From Natrinema versiforme (GTDB lineage Archaea; Halobacteriota; Halobacteria; Halobacteriales; Natrialbaceae), in assembly GCF_005576615.1 (NCBI RefSeq), contig NZ_CP040330.1, positions 3,534,001 to 3,598,000 on the forward strand: a DNA stretch of 64,000 nucleotides. The letters run 5' to 3'. Every line of letters begins with the position of its first letter. The first letter of the stretch is position 1. The translations under genes and the position numbers were made by a program. Of the stretch, positions 2,876 through 57,715 are shown in pieces. The notes below the pieces were generated by a model, which was not told the DNA's origin, made no database searches, and was given only the letters and a program-made list of their open reading frames with translations.

Positions 2876-2948
2876 GGGATCGTGGGTTAGCTTGGTATAC
2901 TTCGGGCCTTGGGTGCCCGTGACCCCGGTTCAAATCCGGGCGATCCCA
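2876..2948 (+). tRNA. tRNA-Pro (anticodon TGG)
   Basis: The acceptor stem GGGATCG (2876-2882) pairs with CGATCCC (2941-2947), followed by discriminator A. The anticodon stem CGGGC/GCCCG encloses loop CTTGGGT, giving anticodon TGG for proline CCA codons. The T arm is CCCGG-TTCAAAT-CCGGG. No intron is present and CCA is not encoded. Its 3' end borders an accessory region, and two further partial copies of the T arm lie within the next 130 nt. Confidence 0.95.
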
Positions 2949-3077
2949 TATTACTGCTGCGAGCAAAACCGCGAGCAGCAGGAATCGGAAAGAGCCCGGA
3001 TTTGAACCTCGGAAGTCGCAGCGCTCGAGCGAAGCGAGAGCGACCGTCTTCCATTGGTTCAAATCCGGGCAACCCCA
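2927..3077 (+). repeat. Three T-arm copies at the tRNA-Pro 3' end (direct, inverted, direct)
   Basis: GGTTCAAATCCGGG of the tRNA T arm (2927-2940) recurs as its reverse complement at 2995-3008 and directly at 3056-3069. The last copy runs on as CAACCCCA, which resembles an acceptor 3' strand but does not pair with this tRNA. This looks like an integration or recombination scar at a tRNA gene. No matching copy was found at the far side of the KAP island, so the element boundaries stay undefined. Confidence 0.7.
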
Positions 3078-3267
3078 TACTGTATAAAAGCAAAGCGGCT
3101 GCTGTTGCCGTTTTGCTCGGCCGTTCCCCCACCACTTAGCGACCGCTAACGGAGGTTGGCGATACTGTCGGTGGAGCTATCCAAGCGCTCCGCTGATTCG
3201 CAGTGCTGTCACTGTAATGTTCACGTTACGGAGCAATTTCGGCGCGTTTTCGGTGACGATGATGGTC

Positions 3268-3576
3268 GGGCCCGACGGCAGCGGTGTGTCCGTCGCAGAC
3301 GATCACTCTGACGCCGTCGCTCGCGATAGTCACGTCGAACTCTCCGAAGACCCGACGCCGCGCCTCGAGGCGAAGTCGGACCACCTGTTGCTGACGACGC
3401 TCCGAGACATGGAGTGAGATCACCCGGAATGTGATCGAGACGGTCGCGACCGACGGCGGTGCGACCGTCGACGATCTCGCCGAGATTCGACGGCACTCTG
3501 CGGCATTGAGTTGACCTGGAAGACCCCCGGCGGTGGGACCGAATCCGGATTCGTCGGCGCGGTCGCCGATCGCTGA
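3268..3576 (+). pseudogene. Decayed DUF7845 gene remnant
   Basis: The translation matches the intact DUF7845 gene at 55188-56807: GPDGSGV-VADDH, EDPTPRLEAKSDHLL and TTLRDM, then after a stop near 3417 the DNA of ETVATDGGATVDDLA, then GIELTWKTPGGGTE and GFVGAVADR ending at 3576. Compared with the intact copy it lacks the 5' part, has a frame break after TTLRDM and has an internal deletion of about 380 nt covering the HTH and coiled region. It cannot make a functional protein. It lies 320 nt after tRNA-Pro and just before the structured block and KAP gene. Confidence 0.85.
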
Positions 3577-3664: not shown

Positions 3665-3846
3665 AGCCAGCACCTCGAGGGCGGGGTCGCCATGGCGATC
3701 GCACCGCGACAGCTGCGGGGTCGTTTCACGCTGCGTGCGAAACGCCCCCTGCCGGGTGTCCCCAAGGGGACAGCGCCAAAAAATTACAGCGCCCCACCCC
3801 GCCTCCGCACGCAGATTTCCAGTTGAAGCACATGAAACAGGGGTTC
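3665..3846 (+). other. Conserved GC-rich structured non-coding block, copy A
   Basis: This non-coding DNA lies between the DUF7845 stop and the KAP gene and is shared with 54917-55110 in inverted orientation. It contains a stem GGGG-T-CGTTTC...GAAACG-CCCC (3717-3748) and a near-palindrome TGTCCCCAAGGGGACA (3757-3772), followed by an A-run and GC-rich tract. Both structures persist in the other copy despite substitutions. It could be a non-coding RNA, a terminator or a recombination/replication site; the sequence alone does not decide. Confidence 0.6.
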
Positions 3847-3949
3847 AGTCTCTCTACGACAGGTGAAACATGGTATAGATTCAGCCCTATTCCAGCGTAG
3901 AGTTGGCTAACCAATATTGATATGGATTTCTCCTTACTAACTAACCACA

Positions 3950-6073
3950 ATGAAAGGAGACGCTAAACTTCAGTCAGATTCGCCACTAGAATCCGTATCT
4001 GAAGACCGGCTTGGATACGGTAGTTTTGCTGATCAGTTAGCGGAGACCATCATATCAAGAACTCCTTCCGACGGATATACAATCGGAATATATGGTCCGT
4101 GGGGTTCCGGGAAAAGCACGATTCTCAACTTCGTTGGAGAAGAAATAGAGAAGAGAGATGTTGAAATCACAACAGTAAAATTTAATCCTTGGTGGTTCAC
4201 TGGTCAAGCGGACTTAATTGAAAAGTTCCTAACGCAGCTAGGGGCCAGTCTAGAATCGGACAGTGATATGACGAATATCCGCGAAAACCTAACCAAATTG
4301 TCCGGAGCTCTCTCTACACTCCCATTAAATGCCTTCACGGGTGTCCCGGCAGACCAACTTGTTGGAACTGCCCACCAACTATTAGATGAAGAGCCAGGGT
4401 CGGTAAACGAGATTAAGCAGGAGATTGAATCGGACTTACGAGAGTTGGACGGAACTATTGTCGTTGTAATAGACGATATTGATCGTCTTAATCCTCAGGA
4501 GACACTCCAGATGTTTCAAATCATCAAAAGTATAGCGAATTTCCCTAATGTAACCTATTTGCTTGCCTTTGACCGTTCCGTCGTCGTGGATGCTCTTGAA
4601 GAAGAGGGGAATATTAAAGATGGATATCTGTATCTGGACAAAATCATCCAGTTGCCTCTCCACATTCCAACCCAGAGAAGCGAAGCCTTAGAATCCCTAT
4701 TTTTGGATAGCCTCAAGTCGATCTCTGAAGAGCATCGTGTTGATACGGAACGTTGGAGTGTACTACTACATCAAGGACTGCTACCGATGTTAGATACGCC
4801 TAGAGATGTGATTCGACTTTCTAATACAGTGAGCGTGATGTCAGCCACGATAGGGACAGAGGTTGACTTTGTTGATCTAGTAGGACTTGAAGCGCTTCGT
4901 GTGTTCTACAATGATGTCTATCAGGAAATACGATCAACCCCACAGCGGTTTGTGGGCTATCGGAGTTCTGGTTACCGCCGAAATGAGGACCCCGACGAAT
5001 ATGTGGATATACTGCCTAATGAGGAGGAGGAGAAAGAAGCAGTACAATCAATCATGACTACTCTATTTCCAAATGTCTCTGATAACCTCAATAATAAATT
5101 CTCGTCATATGATAATTGGAATAAGAAAAGGGCACAACGGCGAATTTGTCATAGAGATAGATTCCCAGTTTATTTCCGGTTAGATATTCCCGAGGGTGAA
5201 TTAGCGACTCCTGAGATCGGCACTATTCTCTCAATAGCCACAGACTATAATGAACTTGAGAGTGAATTGAGGGAACTTTTGGATGAGCCAGGGAGAGAAC
5301 AAGCAACGAAGGCAAGCACCTTCTTCAGACGGCTTCCAGAACGGATGGACGAAATTCCTGACCAAGGTAAGAAGAATTTTATCCGGGCAATTTTCGAACT
5401 TGGGGACAAAATGGTTTCTTGTCAGCCGTTGAACGCCCAAGTTAATGAGGTACGTCATCTCACATTATTAGTTGAGACCCTAATCGGTGAATTGGATGAG
5501 GATGAAATAGAACTTCTCAAATCAGCCATTTCAGAAGGCAATTCCCCCTATTTGTCCTCTTGGTGTCTCAAACGATACCTCCGAGATTTAGAAGAAGAGG
5601 ATTCAGAAACCTATTCAAGGAAACCAGAATGGATCTCGAAGACGCAAATAGAGGAATTGAAACCTGCAGTAATTGAGTCCATTTCTACTGCTGCCGGAAA
5701 TGATAAACTTGTAGATATACCAAGTTTGAGGAAGCCTTTGGGCATATGGGTAGAATTTGGTGATACAGACGCACCCCAAGAGTGGGTTGATGATCTCACC
5801 GAATCAGATGAAGGACTTGTGAAATTCATTCATAAGATGAGTGGCATTACAATCGTCAATATGTCTCAACCCGTTTTCTATCTCGACCCGAAGTGGCTAT
5901 ATGATTATATAGAGAGAGACACGCTCGAAGAAAGACTCGAATCGATCGATACAGAGGAAATTGAGATGGCAAATGAAGTGATCGAAAGATACGAGACTGC
6001 AGTCGAGATGATTGAAAACGGGAAAGATCCATCTACCACTGAGAATTGGATATTCGGTGACAGACTCAATTGA
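3950..6073 (+). CDS. KAP family P-loop NTPase (possible antiviral defence)
   Basis: A 707-residue protein with Walker A GPWGSGKST (about residues 49-57), the family motif KFNPWWF, and Walker B VVVIDDIDRL followed by NVTYLLAFDR, all characteristic of KAP (pfam07693) NTPases. No convincing membrane helices are visible, so it is a soluble KAP member. The C-terminal half is unrecognised. The gene is far richer in A+T than its neighbours and uses AGA/AGG and A/T-ending codons, indicating recent transfer. It sits in an island next to tRNA-Pro and the decayed DUF7845 gene. KAP proteins occur in phage-exclusion and defence loci; the defence role here is inferred from family and location. Confidence 0.85.
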   Translation: MKGDAKLQSDSPLESVSEDRLGYGSFADQLAETIISRTPSDGYTIGIYGPWGSGKSTILNFVGEEIEKRDVEITTVKFNPWWFTGQADLIEKFLTQLGASLESDSDMTNIRENLTKLSGALSTLPLNAFTGVPADQLVGTAHQLLDEEPGSVNEIKQEIESDLRELDGTIVVVIDDIDRLNPQETLQMFQIIKSIANFPNVTYLLAFDRSVVVDALEEEGNIKDGYLYLDKIIQLPLHIPTQRSEALESLFLDSLKSISEEHRVDTERWSVLLHQGLLPMLDTPRDVIRLSNTVSVMSATIGTEVDFVDLVGLEALRVFYNDVYQEIRSTPQRFVGYRSSGYRRNEDPDEYVDILPNEEEEKEAVQSIMTTLFPNVSDNLNNKFSSYDNWNKKRAQRRICHRDRFPVYFRLDIPEGELATPEIGTILSIATDYNELESELRELLDEPGREQATKASTFFRRLPERMDEIPDQGKKNFIRAIFELGDKMVSCQPLNAQVNEVRHLTLLVETLIGELDEDEIELLKSAISEGNSPYLSSWCLKRYLRDLEEEDSETYSRKPEWISKTQIEELKPAVIESISTAAGNDKLVDIPSLRKPLGIWVEFGDTDAPQEWVDDLTESDEGLVKFIHKMSGITIVNMSQPVFYLDPKWLYDYIERDTLEERLESIDTEEIEMANEVIERYETAVEMIENGKDPSTTENWIFGDRLN

Positions 6074-6449
6074 AACCGAACTTTCCGTGAGTCCGACTAT
6101 CTCTCCTCATTGTCATTAATTCAGAACTGGGGTTCAGCGCAACCACCCCTGGGTTGTTCGTCGATAGAATCTAGTTCCTGAATATGCACACAAGGTGCGG
6201 CTCATCGTGTGCATCGCTCGAGTCGGCCCATCGTTTGAACCGCTGTTCGTTTCTGGATGACCGATACGGTTCCCGATTGGAAGCCGGAATGGACCGTTCA
6301 TAAGCCGGAAGCAAGGATATTGGAGGTCGTGTGTACGAATATGCGAATCAGAAGTTCCACTAGCGCCTCGAGCCCACCCACCAAAACCAATGAGCCCTCG
6401 AGCGAGAACCCCGAAAAGGACTATCCACAACGCTAGCAAACGGGAACGC
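6074..6449. other. Intergenic, no gene seen
   Basis: 376 nt after the KAP gene. It starts AT-rich and returns to chromosome-like composition by about 6350, so it probably holds the right edge of the island. I found no convincing coding frame and no copy of the tRNA-Pro 3' end that would mark an attachment site. Confidence 0.5.
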
Positions 6450-50355: not shown

Positions 50356-51408
50356 TTACAGGTCGGGGAGGTAATCGCTACGCTGTTCAGCCTGTTCGCG
50401 GTCCGACCGGCGGTCATAGTGCCGATCGAGAATATCCTCGCTCGCGTTGAGGCGATCTTTGACGACTCGTCGAGGAACGTCCTCGCGTCGGTAGAAGGTC
50501 ACCCGGCCGCTTCGGAGATCGTGCGGCGACCGCGACGACGGGCACTTGCTCGCGTGATCGAGATGGGTCGCGTCGCAGGTCTCGACATCCCGGTCGTGCG
50601 GGCACGCTTCACCGCGCCAGCAGGGACGGGTAACGCGGTACAGAGTCGTCCGGAACGTGTTGCTGGCCGGACGACCGTACTCGGTCGTGAGAAGCGGCTC
50701 ACGGCCGTGATCGTCGGTCACATCGTGACGGTGGTACTCGATATAGTCCTCGAGGTAGCTGGCCGTCTTTTCGCTAATCCGGTTCCAGCGCGTCCCCTTA
50801 TCCTGATTCTTGAGCGGCGTCCCGGTGTCGGGACGGTGAACGAATTGCACTGCGGGACCAGTCACCCGCGGGTGGCTTCCGTCGAGATCGAGATCACGGA
50901 GATCGAGTCCACGGACGGCACCGGTTCGAGCGCCGGTCCGCCACAGCAGGAGAACGATGATGTGATCGCGAGACGCGGGCTGTGCGTGTTCGAGGTAGTC
51001 GAGGATCTCGATTGCCCGTTCGGGCTTCAGAGTCGTTTCCGATACGTCCTCGCCGTTTTTCATCGTCGGCAACGTGACCTGCTCGTACAATTCCGCGGGG
51101 ACGGCATCGATGTTCGCCGCGAATCGCAGGAATCGACGTAACGACGCGAGTTGACCCTTGAGCGTGACCAGCTTGATCGGACCGCGACCGTCGCCTTTCC
51201 CCTCGCGACGCCACGTCCGGTACTTGTACAAATCCCGCCCGGAGAGGGTTGTTAGATCCGCTATGTCGTTCTCATCGCAGAACTGAATGAACGCCTCGAG
51301 TCGGTATCGCTCGCTCTCACGAGTCGAATCCGCGTGCTCGTCGCGCATCGCATCGTGATACATTTCGACCGCTTCGTGCGGCGGAATGGGCTCGAGGTCG
51401 TCACTCAT
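50356..51408 (-). CDS. Tyrosine recombinase/integrase
   Basis: 350 residues from the ATG at 51408. An N-terminal SAM-like domain (about residues 10-105) is followed by the catalytic domain with R in TGARTGAVRGL (about 160), H-x-x-R in SPHDLRSGR (about 296-299) and the tyrosine in DRHYDRRSDRE (about 331). A cysteine/histidine-rich insertion (CWRGEACPHDRDVETC) lies between them. It would catalyse integration at the tRNA-Arg 3' end. It is transcribed toward the adjacent att copy. An upstream 53-residue gene overlaps its start. Confidence 0.95.
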   Translation of the reverse strand: MSDDLEPIPPHEAVEMYHDAMRDEHADSTRESERYRLEAFIQFCDENDIADLTTLSGRDLYKYRTWRREGKGDGRGPIKLVTLKGQLASLRRFLRFAANIDAVPAELYEQVTLPTMKNGEDVSETTLKPERAIEILDYLEHAQPASRDHIIVLLLWRTGARTGAVRGLDLRDLDLDGSHPRVTGPAVQFVHRPDTGTPLKNQDKGTRWNRISEKTASYLEDYIEYHRHDVTDDHGREPLLTTEYGRPASNTFRTTLYRVTRPCWRGEACPHDRDVETCDATHLDHASKCPSSRSPHDLRSGRVTFYRREDVPRRVVKDRLNASEDILDRHYDRRSDREQAEQRSDYLPDL

Positions 51409-51562
51409 CGCGATCGCCCCACGTCGTGCCACCATCAGCTACGAGCCGCTGATCAGAAACAGTCGATACGTCGGTCGTGTCGGGACTTTCAAGGCCCCGT
51501 AAATTGCCATCATACATGGCTTGCGTACCACAGTTACGCGAGCCGCGCGGACCCGGTGTCAT
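51401..51562 (-). CDS. Small ORF coupled to integrase
   Basis: 53 residues, MTPGPRGSRNCGTQAMYDGN and onward, with an acidic tail. Its stop overlaps the integrase start by 8 nt, which favours coupled translation. The frame continues upstream as CPLGPFRKCG, so a longer form starting at another codon might complete a zinc-knuckle. No family recognised with confidence. Confidence 0.45.
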   Translation of the reverse strand: MTPGPRGSRNCGTQAMYDGNLRGLESPDTTDVSTVSDQRLVADGGTTWGDRDE

Positions 51563-51672
51563 CAGCACCGGCCCGCATTTTCTGAACGGACCCAACGGAC
51601 AGTCGGGCCCACGTGGAACTCGCGTTACCCGACCAATCTCGAGTCCACTGTAATAAATTCTCTCACTAGTCG

Positions 51673-51688
51673 TTGAGCTATATCTCAA
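51673..51688. promoter_or_regulatory. Candidate operator between integrase and repressor
   Basis: Near-palindrome TTGAGCTATATCTCAA in the intergenic region between divergent integrase-side and PhiH1-repressor-like genes. A dimeric winged-helix repressor would bind such a site. Confidence 0.4.
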
Positions 51689-51751
51689 TTTACATTGTCT
51701 TTGCAATAGCGTATCGATAGGCGTATTGAGCCGTTTTAATAGAACGAGATT

Positions 51752-52018
51752 ATGCGCAATCCTGGCGATTGGATGCAGATGCCCACCGATGAGAGAATTC
51801 TCGAAGCGTTGCAATCGTCGGGAATGATCCTGTCGCCAGCGGTGATTGCAAAGAATATCGATCGAAGCCGAGAGGAAGTCACTCGCCGACTGACTGTTCT
51901 CGTCGAATATGGTTTTGTCACTCGAGTCGAGCGCGGGTATTATGAGATTGCCGAGCCCGGTGCGCAATATCTCGCCGGAGAACTCGATGCGAGTGAGATT
52001 GATCCGATCGAGGACTAA
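51752..52018 (+). CDS. PhiH1-repressor-like winged-helix protein
   Basis: 88 residues, MRNPGDWMQMPTDERILEAL and onward. The helix-turn-helix (SPAVIAKNIDRSREEVTRRL) and wing (GFVTRVERGYYEI) match the haloarchaeal phage PhiH1 repressor family. It is probably the regulator that keeps the integrative element quiet, acting on the divergent integrase promoter. The gene is opposite in orientation to the integrase, with the candidate operator between them. Confidence 0.85.
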   Translation: MRNPGDWMQMPTDERILEALQSSGMILSPAVIAKNIDRSREEVTRRLTVLVEYGFVTRVERGYYEIAEPGAQYLAGELDASEIDPIED

Positions 52019-52445
52019 GCTCGTCAGATTTCGATTCTCCTTACGACCGCCCCGTCGGAGCAGCGGCTCAAGCCAGCGGGAGCTCTCGTTAACGGATTGA
52101 ACAGCCTCAAGTTCCGGACTCAACCGCCATTCACTCGGTTTCGACTGGCCTGTTCGAACAGACATGGTCGAGTGAAAGTCGCAGATATAGATAAGACCAG
52201 AGCGGAGATGAACGGAAAACATCCGAAAACCGTTCTGAGGGGAGATAATAGCCGGTACAGTGTCTCTATTCCGGTGAGCGGAAAACGGATAGAATGAACG
52301 GAAAACTCAGAAGTCGGGGACGGCGTAGACTTTTCTTTTTCGTTCCCGCTCAGTCCGCTTACAGTGGTCTCAATTCCGATATCGGATAATTATCACTTCT
52401 GATATTGTCCAGAAGCTAGAAGTTAAGCTAAGGCTAGATCTAGCT
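52019..52445. repeat. Intergenic DNA with three TGARCGGAAAAC repeats
   Basis: 427 nt between the repressor and lipoprotein genes; no coding frame is supported. Twelve-base direct repeats TGAACGGAAAAC (52209-52220), TGAGCGGAAAAC (52275-52286) and TGAACGGAAAAC (52295-52306) lie within 100 bp. A related ACGGAAAAC occurs upstream of the DUF7563 operon. They may be operator or iteron sites. Confidence 0.5.
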
Positions 52446-53033
52446 ATGGCTTCAAGACGGGAAATACTCGGAGGAACAGGGGTTCTAACGGCGTCAGTAG
52501 TGGCCGGTTGTCTTGACGAACTTGAAAACGACAGTGAAGACGGAAATACCAACCCTTCGGAACAAGAAACGAGTTACACTGAGAGGCTTCAAGACCAGAC
52601 AACTGACGGTCCAAAGAAACACGAAGAAATATCGAGTTTGTATGAGAGTGGTGATCGATCATATACAAGCGGCTTTGTCGCCTATATGGACGCCGTTCGA
52701 TGGTACAATGCTGAGGAATTCAGCCGAGCACAAGTAGAGTTAGTTACTACTACATCCGACTTAGAGAGCGCCGAAGATGACTTCTCGGAAGCTCTTGATA
52801 TTGCGATGGATATTGACCACGCTGCAGCTATCTCTATTCTTGAGGAAGCGAAAGAAACATCAAGTGCATATCGGCAAGCAGCAGAACTCTTAAACGAAGC
52901 CGCAGAGTTAGCTGGCGAAGGATCTTTCGCAGCAGCTGATAGTAAATCAGACAAAAGTAACGCAGCTCTAGAGGATGTTGAGATGGGTATTGAAGATCAA
53001 GAAGTTATAGACTCGGCACTCGATCTCGATTAA
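52446..53033 (+). CDS. Tat lipoprotein, accessory
   Basis: 195 residues, MASRREILGGTGVLTASVVA then the lipobox AGC. The twin-arginine lipoprotein signal (RREILGG ... VVAGCL) sends it to the outer face of the membrane. The mature protein is acidic and largely helical, with an SSLYESGDRSYTSG stretch. It converges with the RHH gene, sharing 4 nt. Function unknown. Confidence 0.75.
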   Translation: MASRREILGGTGVLTASVVAGCLDELENDSEDGNTNPSEQETSYTERLQDQTTDGPKKHEEISSLYESGDRSYTSGFVAYMDAVRWYNAEEFSRAQVELVTTTSDLESAEDDFSEALDIAMDIDHAAAISILEEAKETSSAYRQAAELLNEAAELAGEGSFAAADSKSDKSNAALEDVEMGIEDQEVIDSALDLD

Positions 53034-53290
53034 CGATAGCGACTCTCAATACTCGTCCGATACCGAAGACCGATTACTGAGGTGTTCGCGATCATCTGGA
53101 TTGTCTCGGGGTCGTACTCTCCTCGAGCATCGTCGATGTTCTCCTCTGATTCGAGTAGGTGCGTGAGTGCCGCGTCGATCACGACGGACATCGGAGGGTC
53201 GTCGTACTCGTCTTTGGCTACGATCGCACTAGCACGGTCAAGTTTTCGCTGTCGTTCATCGGTGAGCTTCAGACTGGTTCGCTTGGTCAT
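53030..53290 (-). CDS. DUF7386-like ribbon-helix-helix protein
   Basis: 86 residues. MTKRTSLKLTDERQRKLDRA is a ribbon-helix-helix N-terminus, and the EYDDPPMSVVIDAALTHLLES part matches haloarchaeal DUF7386 proteins common on plasmids and integrated elements. Probably a small DNA-binding regulator. The gene ends at the stop of the lipoprotein gene. Confidence 0.8.
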   Translation of the reverse strand: MTKRTSLKLTDERQRKLDRASAIVAKDEYDDPPMSVVIDAALTHLLESEENIDDARGEYDPETIQMIANTSVIGLRYRTSIESRYR

Positions 53291-53506
53291 GTTTTAACTG
53301 ATGGTATGCACGGGGGGCCGGTTCGCGTCGCTCGAGGGTGAGCGACCGGCCGGTTCTTTATGAACAGCGGTTGGGAGTCCGGCATGATCACAGCGTGACG
53401 GCTGGATTGGTTCAGATTCTATGCACCTTTTGAGCCCATCGCCCACGGTAGGATGCATACATTGAGGTCTCCCGATACATCTGAGCGCGACCCCACGGGG
53501 TCGGAT

Positions 53507-53719
53507 TCAAACACCCTGTTTCGGCGGCTTGGATTGATCGTCGATCTCGTCGACAAGCGTGAGCGACCACTCCCCGTCGTCGACGTGACGGATATGAACG
53601 TGATGTTCTCCCTCGAGGTCGCCATCCTCGTCGAGAAGACCCTCGAGTCGGAGGTCGTCTTTCGGTAACGTCACACCGGCCGAGCTTCGGTCTAACTTCC
53701 GGAGCTTGTTCAGCGCCAT
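53507..53719 (-). CDS. DUF8053-like (AbrB-like) protein
   Basis: 70 residues from the ATG at 53719, MALNKLRKLDRSSAGVTLPK and onward, with acidic beta-hairpin continuation. This beginning is typical of haloarchaeal DUF8053, an AbrB/SpoVT-like swapped-hairpin fold. Probably a DNA-binding regulator or antitoxin-like partner. It stands alone on the minus strand. Confidence 0.75.
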   Translation of the reverse strand: MALNKLRKLDRSSAGVTLPKDDLRLEGLLDEDGDLEGEHHVHIRHVDDGEWSLTLVDEIDDQSKPPKQGV

Positions 53720-54072
53720 GCAGCGGGCGGCAACCCGCCTTGGTATAAAATTTTCTGAGCCTTGCCTTTCCGATTGAAACGGTGAGAGACTATTGGTTGA
53801 GTTTCCTGAACACTGTCGAACCGGAAATCGCACGACTGCGCGGTGATGTTCAGGTGTAACCGTTCAGCAACCCCCCTTTAGTATAGTGAACACTGGCCCA
53901 TCGCGCTCCCGATCGGGAGTGACTCGAACGATGGGCGCACAGTGTGAGGTCAGCGGAGGAGTATATATAACAGCGCGCAACGCGCGTAGTCCGCGTGAAT
54001 CGTTTGACTTGGCCAGCAATACATGTATTTCAAACTATGACTGAGTGATTTTGATGGTTATACGGAAGAAAT
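53720..54072. other. Intergenic with palindromes and a TATA box
   Basis: 353 nt, no supported gene. Contains CTCCCGATCGGGAG inside a larger CCCATCG...CGATGGG arm and a TATATATAA box near 53963, which could serve the HEPN-like gene or an unseen RNA. GCGCGCAACGCGCG follows. Confidence 0.4.
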
Positions 54073-54729
54073 ATGATAGGATGCGAAATAGATATGAACT
54101 CAATCTACATATCAGGAACCATGACAGATGTGGAAGAGGGACTGGACCGTGCTGAGAGAATGCTCAAAGCGTCTTATGCTGGATTGAATCAATTTCAAAA
54201 GTCGGAGGGGGAAGAGAAAATTATCGGGTTAATGAATTCTGTTTCAAATGGGAGAAATGTGACGTTTGCTCTACAGAAGAATCTGAAAGGTGAAGCGGAA
54301 GGATTCGAAGAGTGGTATCAAGAACGTCAAGCTGTTCTCAAGGAAGACCCGGTTTGCAGTCGAATGAATGAGGTGCGGACAAATATCGTACATGAAGGGG
54401 ATGAAAGCGTAAGCAATTACGCATCGATCAGCGGCAATTCTAGTGAAATTTATAGAGTTATGCCGCCATGGGCAGACGGTGCATTCATCGGAGATCAATA
54501 TGGGGGGTCTGGATTCTATATCGAAAAAGACGGTGGAGAACAAGCCAAATTTTATTATGATTTTTCTGACGCAAATATGCATATTGAGACTGGTTTATTC
54601 TTCAAAGACCAATCCGGTTCAGAGGATATTCCTTACTCCGAAATTACAGACGCCGAAGAAGATCTGAAATACTATGTGAAAATACTAGCAGAATTGGTTC
54701 AAGATGCCAAGGACGAATTCGGAGATTGA
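54073..54729 (+). CDS. HEPN-motif-like protein, AT-rich accessory gene
   Basis: 218 residues (or 211 from the ATG at 54094). The region around residue 100 reads RMNEVRTNIVHEG, an R-x4-H arrangement like the catalytic motif of HEPN RNases, within an all-helical N-terminal half. The C-terminal half is beta-rich and unrecognised (GSGFYIEKDGGEQAKFYYDF). The gene is clearly richer in A+T than its surroundings, marking it as recent cargo of the integrative element. No minimal nucleotidyltransferase antitoxin is adjacent. A defence or toxin role is inferred. Confidence 0.65.
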   Translation: MIGCEIDMNSIYISGTMTDVEEGLDRAERMLKASYAGLNQFQKSEGEEKIIGLMNSVSNGRNVTFALQKNLKGEAEGFEEWYQERQAVLKEDPVCSRMNEVRTNIVHEGDESVSNYASISGNSSEIYRVMPPWADGAFIGDQYGGSGFYIEKDGGEQAKFYYDFSDANMHIETGLFFKDQSGSEDIPYSEITDAEEDLKYYVKILAELVQDAKDEFGD

Positions 54730-54916
54730 ACAACCAGATAAAGAAATACAGTTAATATTGTCAGCATTCTCAAGTTGTTCATTGAGTTTGGCAATTTGGC
54801 TCTCGTGAGCAAAGACCGAAATATCGACTCACAATTCATTTATTCGTACTCAGTAAGCAGAATTCGTCTGCGATAGGTTGTTGTCAAATAACTACTCAAA
54901 ATTCCGATAGGGTTCC
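54730..54916. other. Short AT-rich gap after the HEPN-like gene
   Basis: 187 nt, low GC, leading to the shared structured block. No coding frame seen. Confidence 0.4.
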
Positions 54917-55877
54917 AATGAACCCTGTTTCGTCTGTTTCAACTGGAGATCTGCGTGCAGGGGTGGGGTGGGGCGCTGTAATTTTTGGCGCAGTCCCCTT
55001 GGGGACACCCGCCAAGGGGGTTTTCGCGCGAAGCGCGAAACGACCCCGCCGGCGTTGCGGTGCGATCGCCGTGCCGACCCCGCCCTCGAGGCGCTGGCTA
55101 CAACCTAGGTTTCATACGCAACGGTGGTATTCAAGCAAACTTGTAGAAAAGAGTGGGAACGGCAGTGTTGCCACTATCTGGGCCGCTTCAGCGATCGGCG
55201 ACCGCGCCGACGAACCCTGTTTCAGTCCCACCGCCGGGAGTCTTCCAGGTCAACTCGATCCCGCGCAGTGCCGTCGGATCGTTGCCTGACTTCGACCACT
55301 TCTCGAGGGCCTCGCTCGCGATCGTCGCGACGTTCTCAAAGCTGTCCGACTTCAGTCGGGAGAGAATCGTATCGATCCGCATCTGCCGAGGATCGCCGTT
55401 TTCGTCGAACTCGAGGTCAGCGCCGTTCTTCGCGAGCCACTCCTGGAAGGGCGACGACTCGGCAACGTGGTCGGCCAGTCCCATAATGTGCTGCATTCGA
55501 TCGGCGTAACTCTCGATCGCGTACTCGGCTGACTCGACGAGCGCTCGAAGCTCCTCGCGATACTTCCGGGCCCGGAACGACACGTCGCCTTGATCGAGAT
55601 CTAGGACTTCACCGAGATCTTCGATCGCCCGGTAGATCGTCGCGGGATGTTTCCCCAGCTGGTCGGCGAGATCGTCGACGGTCGCACCGCCGTCGGTCGC
55701 GACCGTCTCCGTGATATCGCGAGCGGTCTCGCCCATATCTCGCAGCGTCGTCATCAACAGGTGGTCCGACTTCGCCTCGAGGCGCGGCGTCGGGTCCTCG
55801 TAGAGTTCGACGAGATCGTCACGGGCGACCGCGTCGAAGTGATCGTCCGCGACGTACACACCGCTGCCGTCGGGACC
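54917..55877 (-). repeat. Long inverted repeat, copy B (partner 3268-3846)
   Basis: Reverse complement of 3268-3846 with divergence. It includes the non-coding structured block (54917-55110, containing GTCCCCTTGGGGAC at 54993-55006 and GTTTTCGCGCGAAGCGCGAAAC at 55020-55041) and the 3' part of the intact DUF7845 gene. Confidence 0.9.
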
Positions 55878-56807
55878 AAGCGGAATATCTTCCCAGTGGA
55901 GCGCATTCAACAGTGTCTCCTCGATCTGCTCGGTCACCTCGTGGCGGTCAGCCCACGCCCACGCCTCGCCGTCGTTCATCGACTTGTTCACTAAGACCTC
56001 CACTTTCGGATGGTAAGACGGGTGATTTTTCGACACCGCGTCCGGGTCTTTCAACTGGTAGATCTCGAACTTTCGTCCGTAGGTGTGGCCGGGGAGTAGT
56101 TCGCTGGCCGACGTAGGGTTCAGGAACAGCCGGTTCTGGTGATTAACGACCTCCCGGTTGTCGATATGGAGTTCGGCTTTCACGCCCTCGAGGTCGGAGA
56201 GGTAGTGCGCGACTTTCTGCAGTACACCGGCCGACGAGAGCTTTTCCGCCCACTCGCGACGGATTCGAACGTAGCGTTCGTACGCCCACATCCGGCTCGC
56301 CGGGTGTGGTTCCGTCCGGAAATACTCCGAGTGAACGCGCTCGCCAGCGTGATCGAACGCCGCCGCGAAGAATTCCGGCAGCAACTCGAGTCCGCGCTCG
56401 GGCTCGAGGTTACTCAGATGGAATTCAACATCGACGCCGTCGACTTCGCCGACCTGATTCTCCCACGGGAGTTGCAGTCGCTCACCGCTCTCCCAGTGGC
56501 GCATATCCGGGAACCGGGGGGAGATATTGAACGATGCTTTCCGCTCACCGCGCCCGCGACCGACAATATCCCACTCGTAGAGCCGTTCAGCGTTGATTCC
56601 GTCCGACAGTCGCGGAGCGAATCCCGACTTGCTGTACCGGACCTCGAGGTGCCAGGGCTCGCCGTCGATCTCGGTGTCGATCTCGAGGTAGCCCTCGAAG
56701 GGAGGTCCGAGCATGACCGACGAGAGCGCGTCGTACGGACCGCGGCCCCAATCGGGCCACTTCCAGCGCCCTTCGATTTCGTGCGGCGTCGTCTCGACCT
56801 GCGACAC
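55188..56807 (-). CDS. DUF7845 protein of integrative elements
   Basis: 539 residues. The first about 300 residues are a beta-rich domain without known motifs (GYLEIDTEIDGEPWHLEV, WENQVGEVDGVDVEFHL). In the middle, ATVDDLADQLGKHPATIYRAI is a winged-helix segment. The protein ends in a helical region and GIELTWKTPGGGTETG. The family is common on haloarchaeal plasmids and integrated elements; a replication-initiator or regulatory role has been suggested by location but I cannot confirm it. It is last in an operon with DUF7563 and zinc-finger genes. A decayed partial copy is at 3268-3576. Confidence 0.8.
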   Translation of the reverse strand: MSQVETTPHEIEGRWKWPDWGRGPYDALSSVMLGPPFEGYLEIDTEIDGEPWHLEVRYSKSGFAPRLSDGINAERLYEWDIVGRGRGERKASFNISPRFPDMRHWESGERLQLPWENQVGEVDGVDVEFHLSNLEPERGLELLPEFFAAAFDHAGERVHSEYFRTEPHPASRMWAYERYVRIRREWAEKLSSAGVLQKVAHYLSDLEGVKAELHIDNREVVNHQNRLFLNPTSASELLPGHTYGRKFEIYQLKDPDAVSKNHPSYHPKVEVLVNKSMNDGEAWAWADRHEVTEQIEETLLNALHWEDIPLGPDGSGVYVADDHFDAVARDDLVELYEDPTPRLEAKSDHLLMTTLRDMGETARDITETVATDGGATVDDLADQLGKHPATIYRAIEDLGEVLDLDQGDVSFRARKYREELRALVESAEYAIESYADRMQHIMGLADHVAESSPFQEWLAKNGADLEFDENGDPRQMRIDTILSRLKSDSFENVATIASEALEKWSKSGNDPTALRGIELTWKTPGGGTETGFVGAVADR

Positions 56808-56809
56808 CG

Positions 56810-57106
56810 CTACTCACCTCGCTCGCGTTCGCTCTCGAGCAAGCCGGTGAGGATGGCGATCGGGTTCCACCACGTGATGGCCCGGCACGAGCGACAGACG
56901 TGCTTGAACGACGTGCAGTCCGCCGCATCAATATCCGAGAGAGCAGCCCGAGGGTCGATCTCCATCGCCTCGAGGCTGGTCCGCGTGACTCGAATTCGCC
57001 CACAGCCCACGCAGACTGCGTCGACGGGAACACGGACTCGACCGGACGTCGAAGTGCCGGGGTCGGCCTCGAGGTCGCGATCGTCACGATCGGCGTCGGC
57101 ACTCAT
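56810..57106 (-). CDS. Zinc-ribbon protein in DUF7845 operon
   Basis: 98 residues. Two knuckles, CVGCG and CRSC, are 35 residues apart (VDAVCVGCGRIRVT and SFKHVCRSCRAITWW). Acidic N-terminus, basic tail. It ends 2 nt before DUF7845 and starts 4 nt inside the stop of the preceding small gene, so all are coupled. Function unknown; a DNA- or RNA-binding accessory protein is plausible. Confidence 0.75.
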   Translation of the reverse strand: MSADADRDDRDLEADPGTSTSGRVRVPVDAVCVGCGRIRVTRTSLEAMEIDPRAALSDIDAADCTSFKHVCRSCRAITWWNPIAILTGLLESERERGE

Positions 57107-57237
57107 CGCGACTCACCCTGATTTTCGAGCGCGCGCCGGACCTGCTCGTCAGTAGCTTGCGCCGCGGGATGGGTGATGGGCGTCCGGCTTTCGAGGTCGT
57201 ACAGTTCGCTCGCCCGGACGAACGGCCGATCACACAT
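57103..57237 (-). CDS. Small hypothetical protein in DUF7845 operon
   Basis: 44 residues from the ATG at 57237 (MCDRPFVRASELYDLESRTP), overlapping DUF7563 by 8 nt and the zinc-ribbon gene by 4 nt. No motif recognised. The tight overlaps on both sides support translation. Confidence 0.5.
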   Translation of the reverse strand: MCDRPFVRASELYDLESRTPITHPAAQATDEQVRRALENQGESR

Positions 57238-57469
57238 CGGGCTCACCGCCGTGACGGCCGGGCGACGTTTCCGGGTCCGGAATCGATACGTCGACGCCAG
57301 CACCGGAGCCGCGGCTCAGTCGAGCGTACGTATCGCACTCGCCACAGCGATGGGCTCGATCGTCATCGTCACCGAAGACCCGACGGAACTGATCCGTGAC
57401 GTAGGCTCCGCAGTGCTGGCACGTCGATCGATCAGCCGACGGCCACGGAGCGACCGTCACGCGGACCAC
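57230..57469 (-). CDS. DUF7563-like zinc-finger protein
   Basis: 79 residues. CQHCGAYVTDQFRRVFGDDD and AHRCGECDTY form the CxxC...CxxC zinc finger typical of haloarchaeal DUF7563, found beside DUF7845 on many elements. First gene of the operon. The promoter region upstream holds GTTCAAC/GTTGAAC repeats. Confidence 0.8.
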   Translation of the reverse strand: MVRVTVAPWPSADRSTCQHCGAYVTDQFRRVFGDDDDRAHRCGECDTYARLSRGSGAGVDVSIPDPETSPGRHGGEPDV

Positions 57470-57476
57470 CCCGTGA

Positions 57477-57531
57477 GTTGAACAACAACGGAAAACGCAC
57501 GCGGGCGAGAGGGTGCGTTCAACTGTTGAAC
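57477..57531. promoter_or_regulatory. Operator-like GTTGAAC repeats upstream of DUF7563 operon
   Basis: GTTGAAC (57477-57483) and the palindrome GTTCAACTGTTGAAC (57517-57531) flank the expected promoter of the operon. A dimeric regulator could bind. AACGGAAAAC lies between them. Confidence 0.45.
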
Positions 57532-57540
57532 GGAATCCCC

Positions 57541-57638
57541 ATTCTCAGAATGGCTACCGAATCGGTAATCCGTTGAATCTGAACGGTACCGTTCGTAATA
57601 CGGACTTCTGGGTAGAAGTCCGAAAACGATAGTTTTCG
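57541..57638. repeat. Cluster of five hairpins after tRNA-Arg
   Basis: ATTCTCAGAAT (57541-57551), ACCGAATCGGT (57556-57566), GAACGGTACCGTTC (57581-57594), CGGACTTCT-GGGT-AGAAGTCCG (57601-57622) and CGAAAAC-GATA-GTTTTCG (57621-57638) follow each other within 98 bp, immediately beyond the 3' end of tRNA-Arg. They may be integrase arm sites or a terminator array. Confidence 0.75.
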
Positions 57639-57640
57639 TA

Positions 57641-57715
57641 CGGGCACGATGGGATTTGAACCCACGACCGTCGGATTAGAAGTCCGACGCTCTTTCCGGA
57701 CTGAGCTACGTGCCC
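57641..57715 (-). tRNA. tRNA-Arg (anticodon TCT)
   Basis: Minus strand: acceptor GGGCACG pairs with CGTGCCC; the anticodon stem TCGGA/TCCGA encloses CTTCTAA giving anticodon TCT for AGA codons. T arm GTGGG-TTCAAAT-CCCAT. The discriminator is G at 57641. Its 3' end is the insertion target of the adjacent integrative element, and it remains intact. Confidence 0.95.
57643..57655. repeat. Putative attachment site within tRNA-Arg
   Basis: GGCACGATGGGAT inside the tRNA-Arg 3' end, matching 50297-50309 exactly. Confidence 0.65.

What the first reader, a model, noticed from the sequence alone, without database searches (positions are those of the whole stretch)
3665..3846. Conserved structured non-coding block beside DUF7845
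Seen: stem GGGG-CGTTTC/GAAACG-CCCC (3717-3748) and near-palindrome TGTCCCCAAGGGGACA (3757-3772) recur in the other copy at 55020-55041 and 54993-55006. In the first stem a G-C pair of one copy is G-T in the other, keeping pairing, while one position becomes an A-C mismatch. The conservation of non-coding DNA in a decayed locus suggests function in recombination, replication or as RNA.
Basis: partly seen in the sequence, partly recalled or inferred. Interest (0 to 1): 0.6.

Follow-up and report, generated by a model that had tools for sequence, protein, structure and literature searches.

The report
Viral replication origin bordering defence cassettes
The conserved hairpin block is very probably the rolling-circle replication start site of an archaeal virus-like element, and it also marks one exact edge of a slot that holds a different, often antiviral, gene set in almost every copy examined, so viral replication may help shuffle defence genes between haloarchaea.

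Summary
In detail: hairpins at 3717-3748 and 3757-3772, repeated at about 54993-55046, with covarying relatives in 94 of 125 Natrialbaceae genomes.

The block matches no known RNA family. It lies downstream of DUF7845, now known as the Rep-Arvir rolling-circle initiator, and its second hairpin matches the SNJ2 origin tested by mutation (GTGTGGCTAAGGCCA). Copy 1 has lost most of rep; copy 2 keeps the residues essential in SNJ2.

Not described in the papers I could search: the block is a base-sharp border. After ...CCAGTTGAAGCACATGAAACRGRGGT homology stops and an AT-rich insert (43 bp to 5.4 kb) begins, different in nearly every copy; most inserts end at a second conserved element (A or B). Many large inserts resemble defence genes; here it is a PifA-like KAP ATPase. 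About 22 copies start exactly at the hairpin in unrelated backbones. One cargo occurs in two backbones with homology starting at the hairpin. A cargo-free allele exists.

Best reading: a rolling-circle origin that is also one end of exchangeable, often defence-bearing cassettes, resembling staphylococcal DSO-gene-SSO elements. The origin identity is strong; how cassettes move is inferred.

The parts
3665..3844 (+). Origin block, copy 1 (left border of the cargo); homology ends at base 3844
3717..3748 (+). Upstream inverted repeat/stem (candidate Rep bind site)
   Evidence: the bind-site role is by analogy with SNJ2
3757..3772 (+). Nick-site hairpin TGTCCCCAAGGGGACA; left limit of the copies found in unrelated backbones
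3777..3788 (+). CAAAAAATTACA, conserved A-rich tract, as in the SNJ2/HRPV-3/HHPV3 origins
3819..3844 (+). Border motif CCAGTTGAAGCACATGAAACAGGGGT
3265..3573 (+). Decayed rep (DUF7845 protein) remnant: parts matching residues 310-391 and 512-539 of the copy-2 Rep; catalytic part absent
3845..6142 (+). Cargo insert, 43% GC
3950..6073 (+). KAP P-loop NTPase, PifA-like, 707 aa
   Evidence: PADLOC PifA E 9.7e-117
6143..6258 (+). Right border element A, with an inverted repeat of the ATGCACACA...TGTGTGCAT kind
54922..55115 (-). Origin block, copy 2
54993..55008 (-). Nick-site hairpin, copy 2
55016..55046 (-). Upstream stem, copy 2
54921..54946 (-). Border motif, copy 2
55188..56807 (-). Rep-Arvir (DUF7845) gene, 539 aa, with E10, Y250, E270 aligned to SNJ2 E25, Y283, E303
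54073..54729 (+). Cargo ORF of copy 2, 218 aa, no family match; its right border is not type A or B

Best explanation
The block is the double-strand (nick) origin of a Rep-Arvir rolling-circle replicon related to betapleolipovirus proviruses: an upstream inverted repeat for Rep binding, a hairpin with an AA loop for nicking, an A-rich tract, then a 26-nt border motif. The same origin forms one end of an exchangeable cassette: [hairpin ... border motif] - cargo - [element A, often followed by a DUF7692 gene, or element B]. Shown by sequence: homology to the SNJ2 origin, the base-sharp borders, variable and often defence-like cargo, the unit starting exactly at the hairpin in unrelated backbones, and tandem arrays. 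Inferred: Rep nicking at the hairpin yields single-stranded or nicked DNA that starts at the origin, carries the cargo and ends near A (perhaps a single-strand origin), and this DNA is joined into another locus by Rep or by host recombination, as proposed for staphylococcal DSO-gene-SSO elements.
For: Origin: position directly 3' of DUF7845; SNJ2 GTGTGGCTAAGGCCA and HRPV-3/HHPV3 GTGTGGCTAAGGCCACA against GTGTCCCCAAGGGGACA here, each followed by an A-rich tract. SNJ2 loop and stem mutants abolish replication while the paired swap 188/195 is tolerated; nature makes a C-G/G-C swap at the equivalent pair here. Catalytic residues are kept in copy 2. Border: over 72 copies information falls from 1.3-1.5 bits to about 0.05 bit within two bases of the motif end; GC 65% left against 42% right; about 80 inserts. 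Left limit: in 25 copies classed as lacking the rep-side stem, upstream positions carry mostly under 0.4 bit, then 1.9 bits from the first hairpin base. Movement: L041 and L068 share 1.26 kb at 93% starting at the hairpin, with unrelated DNA to the left. G060 and G061 have about 95% identical flanks with different inserts. Cargo-free allele L175 with 9 nt between motif and ORF18 stop; L173 carries about 3 kb there. Cargo: 9 of 10 large cargo proteins match PADLOC at 1e-8, against 1 of 10 window controls.
Against: No nicking, replication or movement was tested. Only one clear case of the same cargo in two backbones was found. The SNJ2 minimal origin lacks the 26-nt motif, so the role of the motif is unknown. 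That element A is a single-strand origin is a guess: window A does not fold better than shuffles, and A precedes a DUF7692 gene, so it may be a promoter or operator. Copy 2 has no A or B. G061 has cargo at the same place without the block. Homologous recombination between conserved flanks could spread cargo with no Rep chemistry. The PADLOC control is small and some control ORFs may not be genes.
Confidence: 0.7

Rival explanations
1. Origin only: the block is a Rep-Arvir origin, and the cargo beside it is an ordinary accessory-gene hotspot exchanged by homologous recombination in the conserved flanks; the sharp border merely marks where functional sequence ends.
For: Conserved flanks of hundreds of bp on both sides in proviruses; G060/G061 share about 95% identical flanks with different inserts; hotspots of this kind are known in phages and their satellites (general knowledge).
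Against: About 22 copies have the hairpin as the first shared base with unrelated left DNA, where left-flank homology cannot have served; L041/L068 homology starts at the hairpin; modules recur in tandem arrays.
Confidence: 0.3
2. A structured non-coding RNA expressed from the block acts on replication or on the cargo genes.
For: Stable, covarying stems; the SNJ2 paper places a conserved motif near the transcript end of the rep operon.
Against: No Rfam match; the palindrome is equally a DNA hairpin and matches a tested DNA origin; copies without rep upstream have unrelated upstream sequence, so no shared promoter is apparent.
Confidence: 0.05
3. The border motif is a site for a tyrosine recombinase (integron-like cassette insertion), and the origin only happens to lie beside it.
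For: Base-sharp border, tandem modules with complete genes between repeated elements; a tyrosine integrase lies at 50356-51435.
Against: None of the protein groups shared by the loci examined was recognised as a recombinase next to the block; in copies without rep the conserved unit runs from the hairpin, not from the motif alone; no clear inverted core sites were seen by eye.
Confidence: 0.12
4. The border motif is an Orc1/Cdc6 origin recognition box that loads the host helicase.
For: Loose likeness to haloarchaeal boxes, which end in a G-run (the likeness itself is recalled, not measured).
Against: Flanks of 11 of 12 orc1/cdc6 genes in this genome hold no good match to the motif; one does.
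Confidence: 0.04

Closest known systems
Rep-Arvir (DUF7845) origin of Natrinema virus SNJ2 and other betapleolipoviruses (PMC13107129)
   Same: Position 3' of rep, upstream inverted repeat, hairpin GTGTNNCYAAGGNNACA with A-rich tract, same tolerated base-pair swap
   Different: Here 70 more bases follow, ending in a 26-nt motif and a base-sharp border with cargo; many copies stand without rep and in other backbones; SNJ2 has its ORF18 shortly after the origin
DSO-gene-SSO elements of staphylococcal rolling-circle plasmids (qacC, lnuA; PMC5037232)
   Same: Cargo gene placed directly beside the double-strand origin, same cargo in different backbones, no transposase needed, proposed nicked or single-stranded intermediate
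   Different: Archaeal proviruses and plasmids; Rep family unrelated or only distantly related; cargo highly varied and often defence-like; arrays occur; single-strand-origin role of element A untested
Defence-gene hotspots of phages and satellites (general knowledge)
   Same: Fixed position, ever-changing defence cargo between conserved sequences
   Different: One border is the replication origin itself, and the unit starts at the nick hairpin outside its usual backbone
Integron cassette arrays (general knowledge)
   Same: Tandem units separated by a repeated hairpin-bearing element
   Different: No integron integrase tied to the block; the repeated element is a rolling-circle origin of about 92 nt or a 0.35-0.5 kb module

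Membership tests
Rep-Arvir rolling-circle origin | Lies directly downstream of a DUF7845 gene | tested here: met
   Copy 2: 55188-56807 then block; copy 1 next to a rep remnant
Rep-Arvir rolling-circle origin | Conserved distal hairpin with the (C/T)AAGG core and paired arms | tested here: met
Rep-Arvir rolling-circle origin | Inverted repeat upstream of the hairpin | tested here: met
   3717-3748, paired in 96.7% of cells
Rep-Arvir rolling-circle origin | Rep with essential Tyr and Glu residues | tested here: met
   Copy 2 Y250, E10, E270; copy 1 Rep has lost this part
Rep-Arvir rolling-circle origin | Supports autonomous replication with Rep | not testable with these tools
   needs a transformation assay
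DSO-gene-SSO element | Cargo between a double-strand origin and a single-strand origin | tested here: inconclusive
   DSO side supported; element A as SSO not shown
DSO-gene-SSO element | Same cargo unit in different backbones | tested here: met
   L041/L068; one clear case only
DSO-gene-SSO element | No transposase in the unit | tested here: met
   Among the 25 commonest Pfam families of 110 cargo proteins one is a transposase, in one protein
Known structured RNA family | Covariance-model match | tested here: not met
   Only two tRNAs in the window
IS91/Helitron-like transposon | HUH transposase | tested here: not met
   No HUH family among the 25 commonest families listed for the cargo; Rep-Arvir is not HUH

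The most novel reading that the evidence does not exclude
Rep-Arvir rolling-circle origins double as the mobile end of defence-gene cassettes: Rep chemistry at the hairpin moves origin-cargo units between proviruses, plasmids and chromosomes of haloarchaea and stacks them in tandem, an archaeal gene-capture system driven by a replication initiator rather than a transposase or integrase.
Probability: 0.35. Interest if true: 0.82.

Novelty: new variant of a known kind. Interest (0 to 1): 0.62.

Why it matters
The origin itself follows a 2026 paper. If the cassette reading holds, it would explain how haloarchaea pass antiviral genes around, extend gene movement through rolling-circle origins from staphylococcal plasmids to archaea, and give a base-precise marker with which to find new defence genes: cargo is different in nearly every copy, and much of it has no informative family match.

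Tried and rejected
Rfam search of the window: only tRNAs. BLASTN of the block against phage records: none, because viral origins share only the short hairpin. Orc1/Cdc6 box idea: 11 of 12 orc1 flanks lack the motif. CRISPR-repeat likeness of GTTGAAGC: dropped, since variants with GATCC or GAAAC occur at that place. A strict empty site for copies without rep: not found; G060/G061 gave a replaced insert instead. Structure prediction of the copy-2 cargo ORF: mean pLDDT 41, unusable; no plasmid relatives of it. PDB sequence search for the PifA-like protein: none.

Full report
What is there. The two hairpins stand at 3717-3748 and 3757-3772 and recur on the minus strand at about 54993-55046. BLAST matches lie on plasmids of Natrinema, Haloterrigena, Natrialba and other Natrialbaceae. 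A 281-base query finds five places in the genome itself, and a 301-base query finds matches in 94 of 125 genomes of the family.

What it is. DUF7845 beside copy 2 (55188-56807) is the domain of Rep-Arvir, a rolling-circle initiator family described in 2026 from virus SNJ2 (PMC13107129). That paper shows that a 210-bp region downstream of rep is needed for replication, with an upstream inverted repeat and a distal hairpin; breaking the stem or loop abolishes replication and one paired swap is tolerated. I read the regions downstream of rep in SNJ2, HHPV3 and HRPV-3: GTGTGGCTAAGGCCA, GTGTGGCTAAGGCCACA and GTGTGGCTAAGGCCACA, each followed shortly by an A-rich tract. The block has GTGTCCCCAAGGGGACA followed by CAAAAAATTACA. 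Across 74 copies the pair equivalent to the SNJ2 swap changes C-G to G-C in 21 copies. With other families added, arms such as TGTGCCT/GGGCACA and TGCGCCT/GGGCGCA appear, and four of seven pairs change on both sides. The copy-2 Rep aligns Y250, E10 and E270 with SNJ2 Y283, E25 and E303. Copy 1 keeps only parts of Rep matching residues 310-391 and 512-539.

The border. Lined up on the motif CCAGTTGAAGCACATGAAACRGRGGT, 72 copies agree to the final T and then turn random within two bases. The DNA beyond has 42% GC against 65% on the block side. In 54 of the 72 a second stretch shared with five or more other loci begins within the DNA held. It is usually of two kinds: A, starting near CCCTGGGGTTGCACGTCGACAGAATCC with a TGCACACGA...TCGTGTGCA repeat, or B, starting TGCCCCTAAGGGGGCAGGG. 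Elements follow a fixed order and orientation: block, cargo, then B-block-cargo units in some loci, then A. Window copy 1 has A at 6143-6258. Bordered inserts run from 43 bp to 5.4 kb and hold up to about four genes. A is followed in many loci by a gene for a DUF7692 protein, and similarity ends near its stop codon. In the proviruses a 127-aa gene like the SNJ2 gene after rep, then a pleolipovirus NTPase gene, follow. L175, from another family, shows the arrangement without cargo: nine bases between the motif and the stop codon of that gene, while L173 of the same family has about 3 kb there.

Signs of movement. In 25 copies classed as lacking the rep-side stem (about 22 truly so; L021, L077 and L089 look misclassed), upstream positions carry little information until the base before the hairpin (1.1 bits) and 1.9 bits from its first base. 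Their upstream DNA is unrelated apart from a few pairs. L041 and L068 share 1.26 kb at 93% from the hairpin into the cargo, with unrelated DNA to the left. G060 and G061 have flanks about 95% alike with different inserts; the G061 insert lacks the block, so the site is used by other DNA too.

Cargo. The window cargo is a KAP NTPase with a strong match to the PADLOC model of PifA, a phage-exclusion protein. Ten large cargo proteins were scanned singly: nine match PADLOC models at 1e-8 or better, among them type IIG restriction-modification, a reverse transcriptase of type UG21, HEC-05, a Lamassu LmuB-like protein and a kinase like PD-T4-6; of ten long window ORFs one did, a helicase. Many PADLOC models are broad, the cargo set was picked by size, and some control ORFs may not be genes, so this suggests rather than proves enrichment. 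In the whole set of 110, Pfam named 67 families, of which 13 were seen in more than one protein.

How it may work. Shown: origin likeness, borders, cargo variety, unit starting at the hairpin. Inferred: Rep nicks the hairpin, and a strand that begins there carries the cargo; it is rejoined at another locus by Rep or by host recombination. The nearest described case is the DSO-gene-SSO element of staphylococcal plasmids, itself a model without experimental proof (PMC5037232). Whether A is a single-strand origin, an operator or something else is open.

Extent. The covariance model found matches in 97 of 292 genomes of the class, 61 in this family and 36 in others. All nine read from other families carry the motif, with the same kind of end, eight with GGT and one with GGA.

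Literature. I found no description of this cargo site in the open-access papers searched. Subscription papers and preprints were not covered, so novelty is provisional.

Noticed in passing
window 2927-2950 and 3056-3079: The 3' end of tRNA-Pro is repeated 129 bp downstream (92% identical), the usual mark of an element integrated at this tRNA.
   Followed up: partly
window 3950-6073: PifA-like KAP NTPase in an archaeon; PADLOC PifA model E 9.7e-117 over almost the full length.
   Followed up: partly
window 50356-57715: Tyrosine integrase, an ORF similar to the winged-helix regulator found beside element A in other loci, cargo, origin and Rep up to tRNA-Arg: a probable integrated element without clear repeats at its ends.
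   Followed up: partly
window 53700-54060: The right side of the copy 2 cargo has another kind of shared border, different from A and B.
   Followed up: no
L059, L039, L047, L107: Module B-(small gene)-block of about 0.35-0.5 kb between two cargoes; the small gene encodes MRxPQDDLLVV...IADQHGL-type proteins.
   Followed up: partly
L051 around 4930-5090 and L054 around 4870-5090: Two different Rep-Arvir-type origins stand in tandem less than 150 bp apart.
   Followed up: no
L189, minus strand, about 3328: Border motif without the origin hairpin near an orc1/cdc6 gene at the start of contig C2.
   Followed up: partly
L085:8251-9879: Cargo reverse transcriptase of defence type UG21 (E 3.7e-164) directly after the block.
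   Followed up: no
own genome G000: Eighteen Orc1/Cdc6 matches over the curated cut-off in one genome.
   Followed up: no
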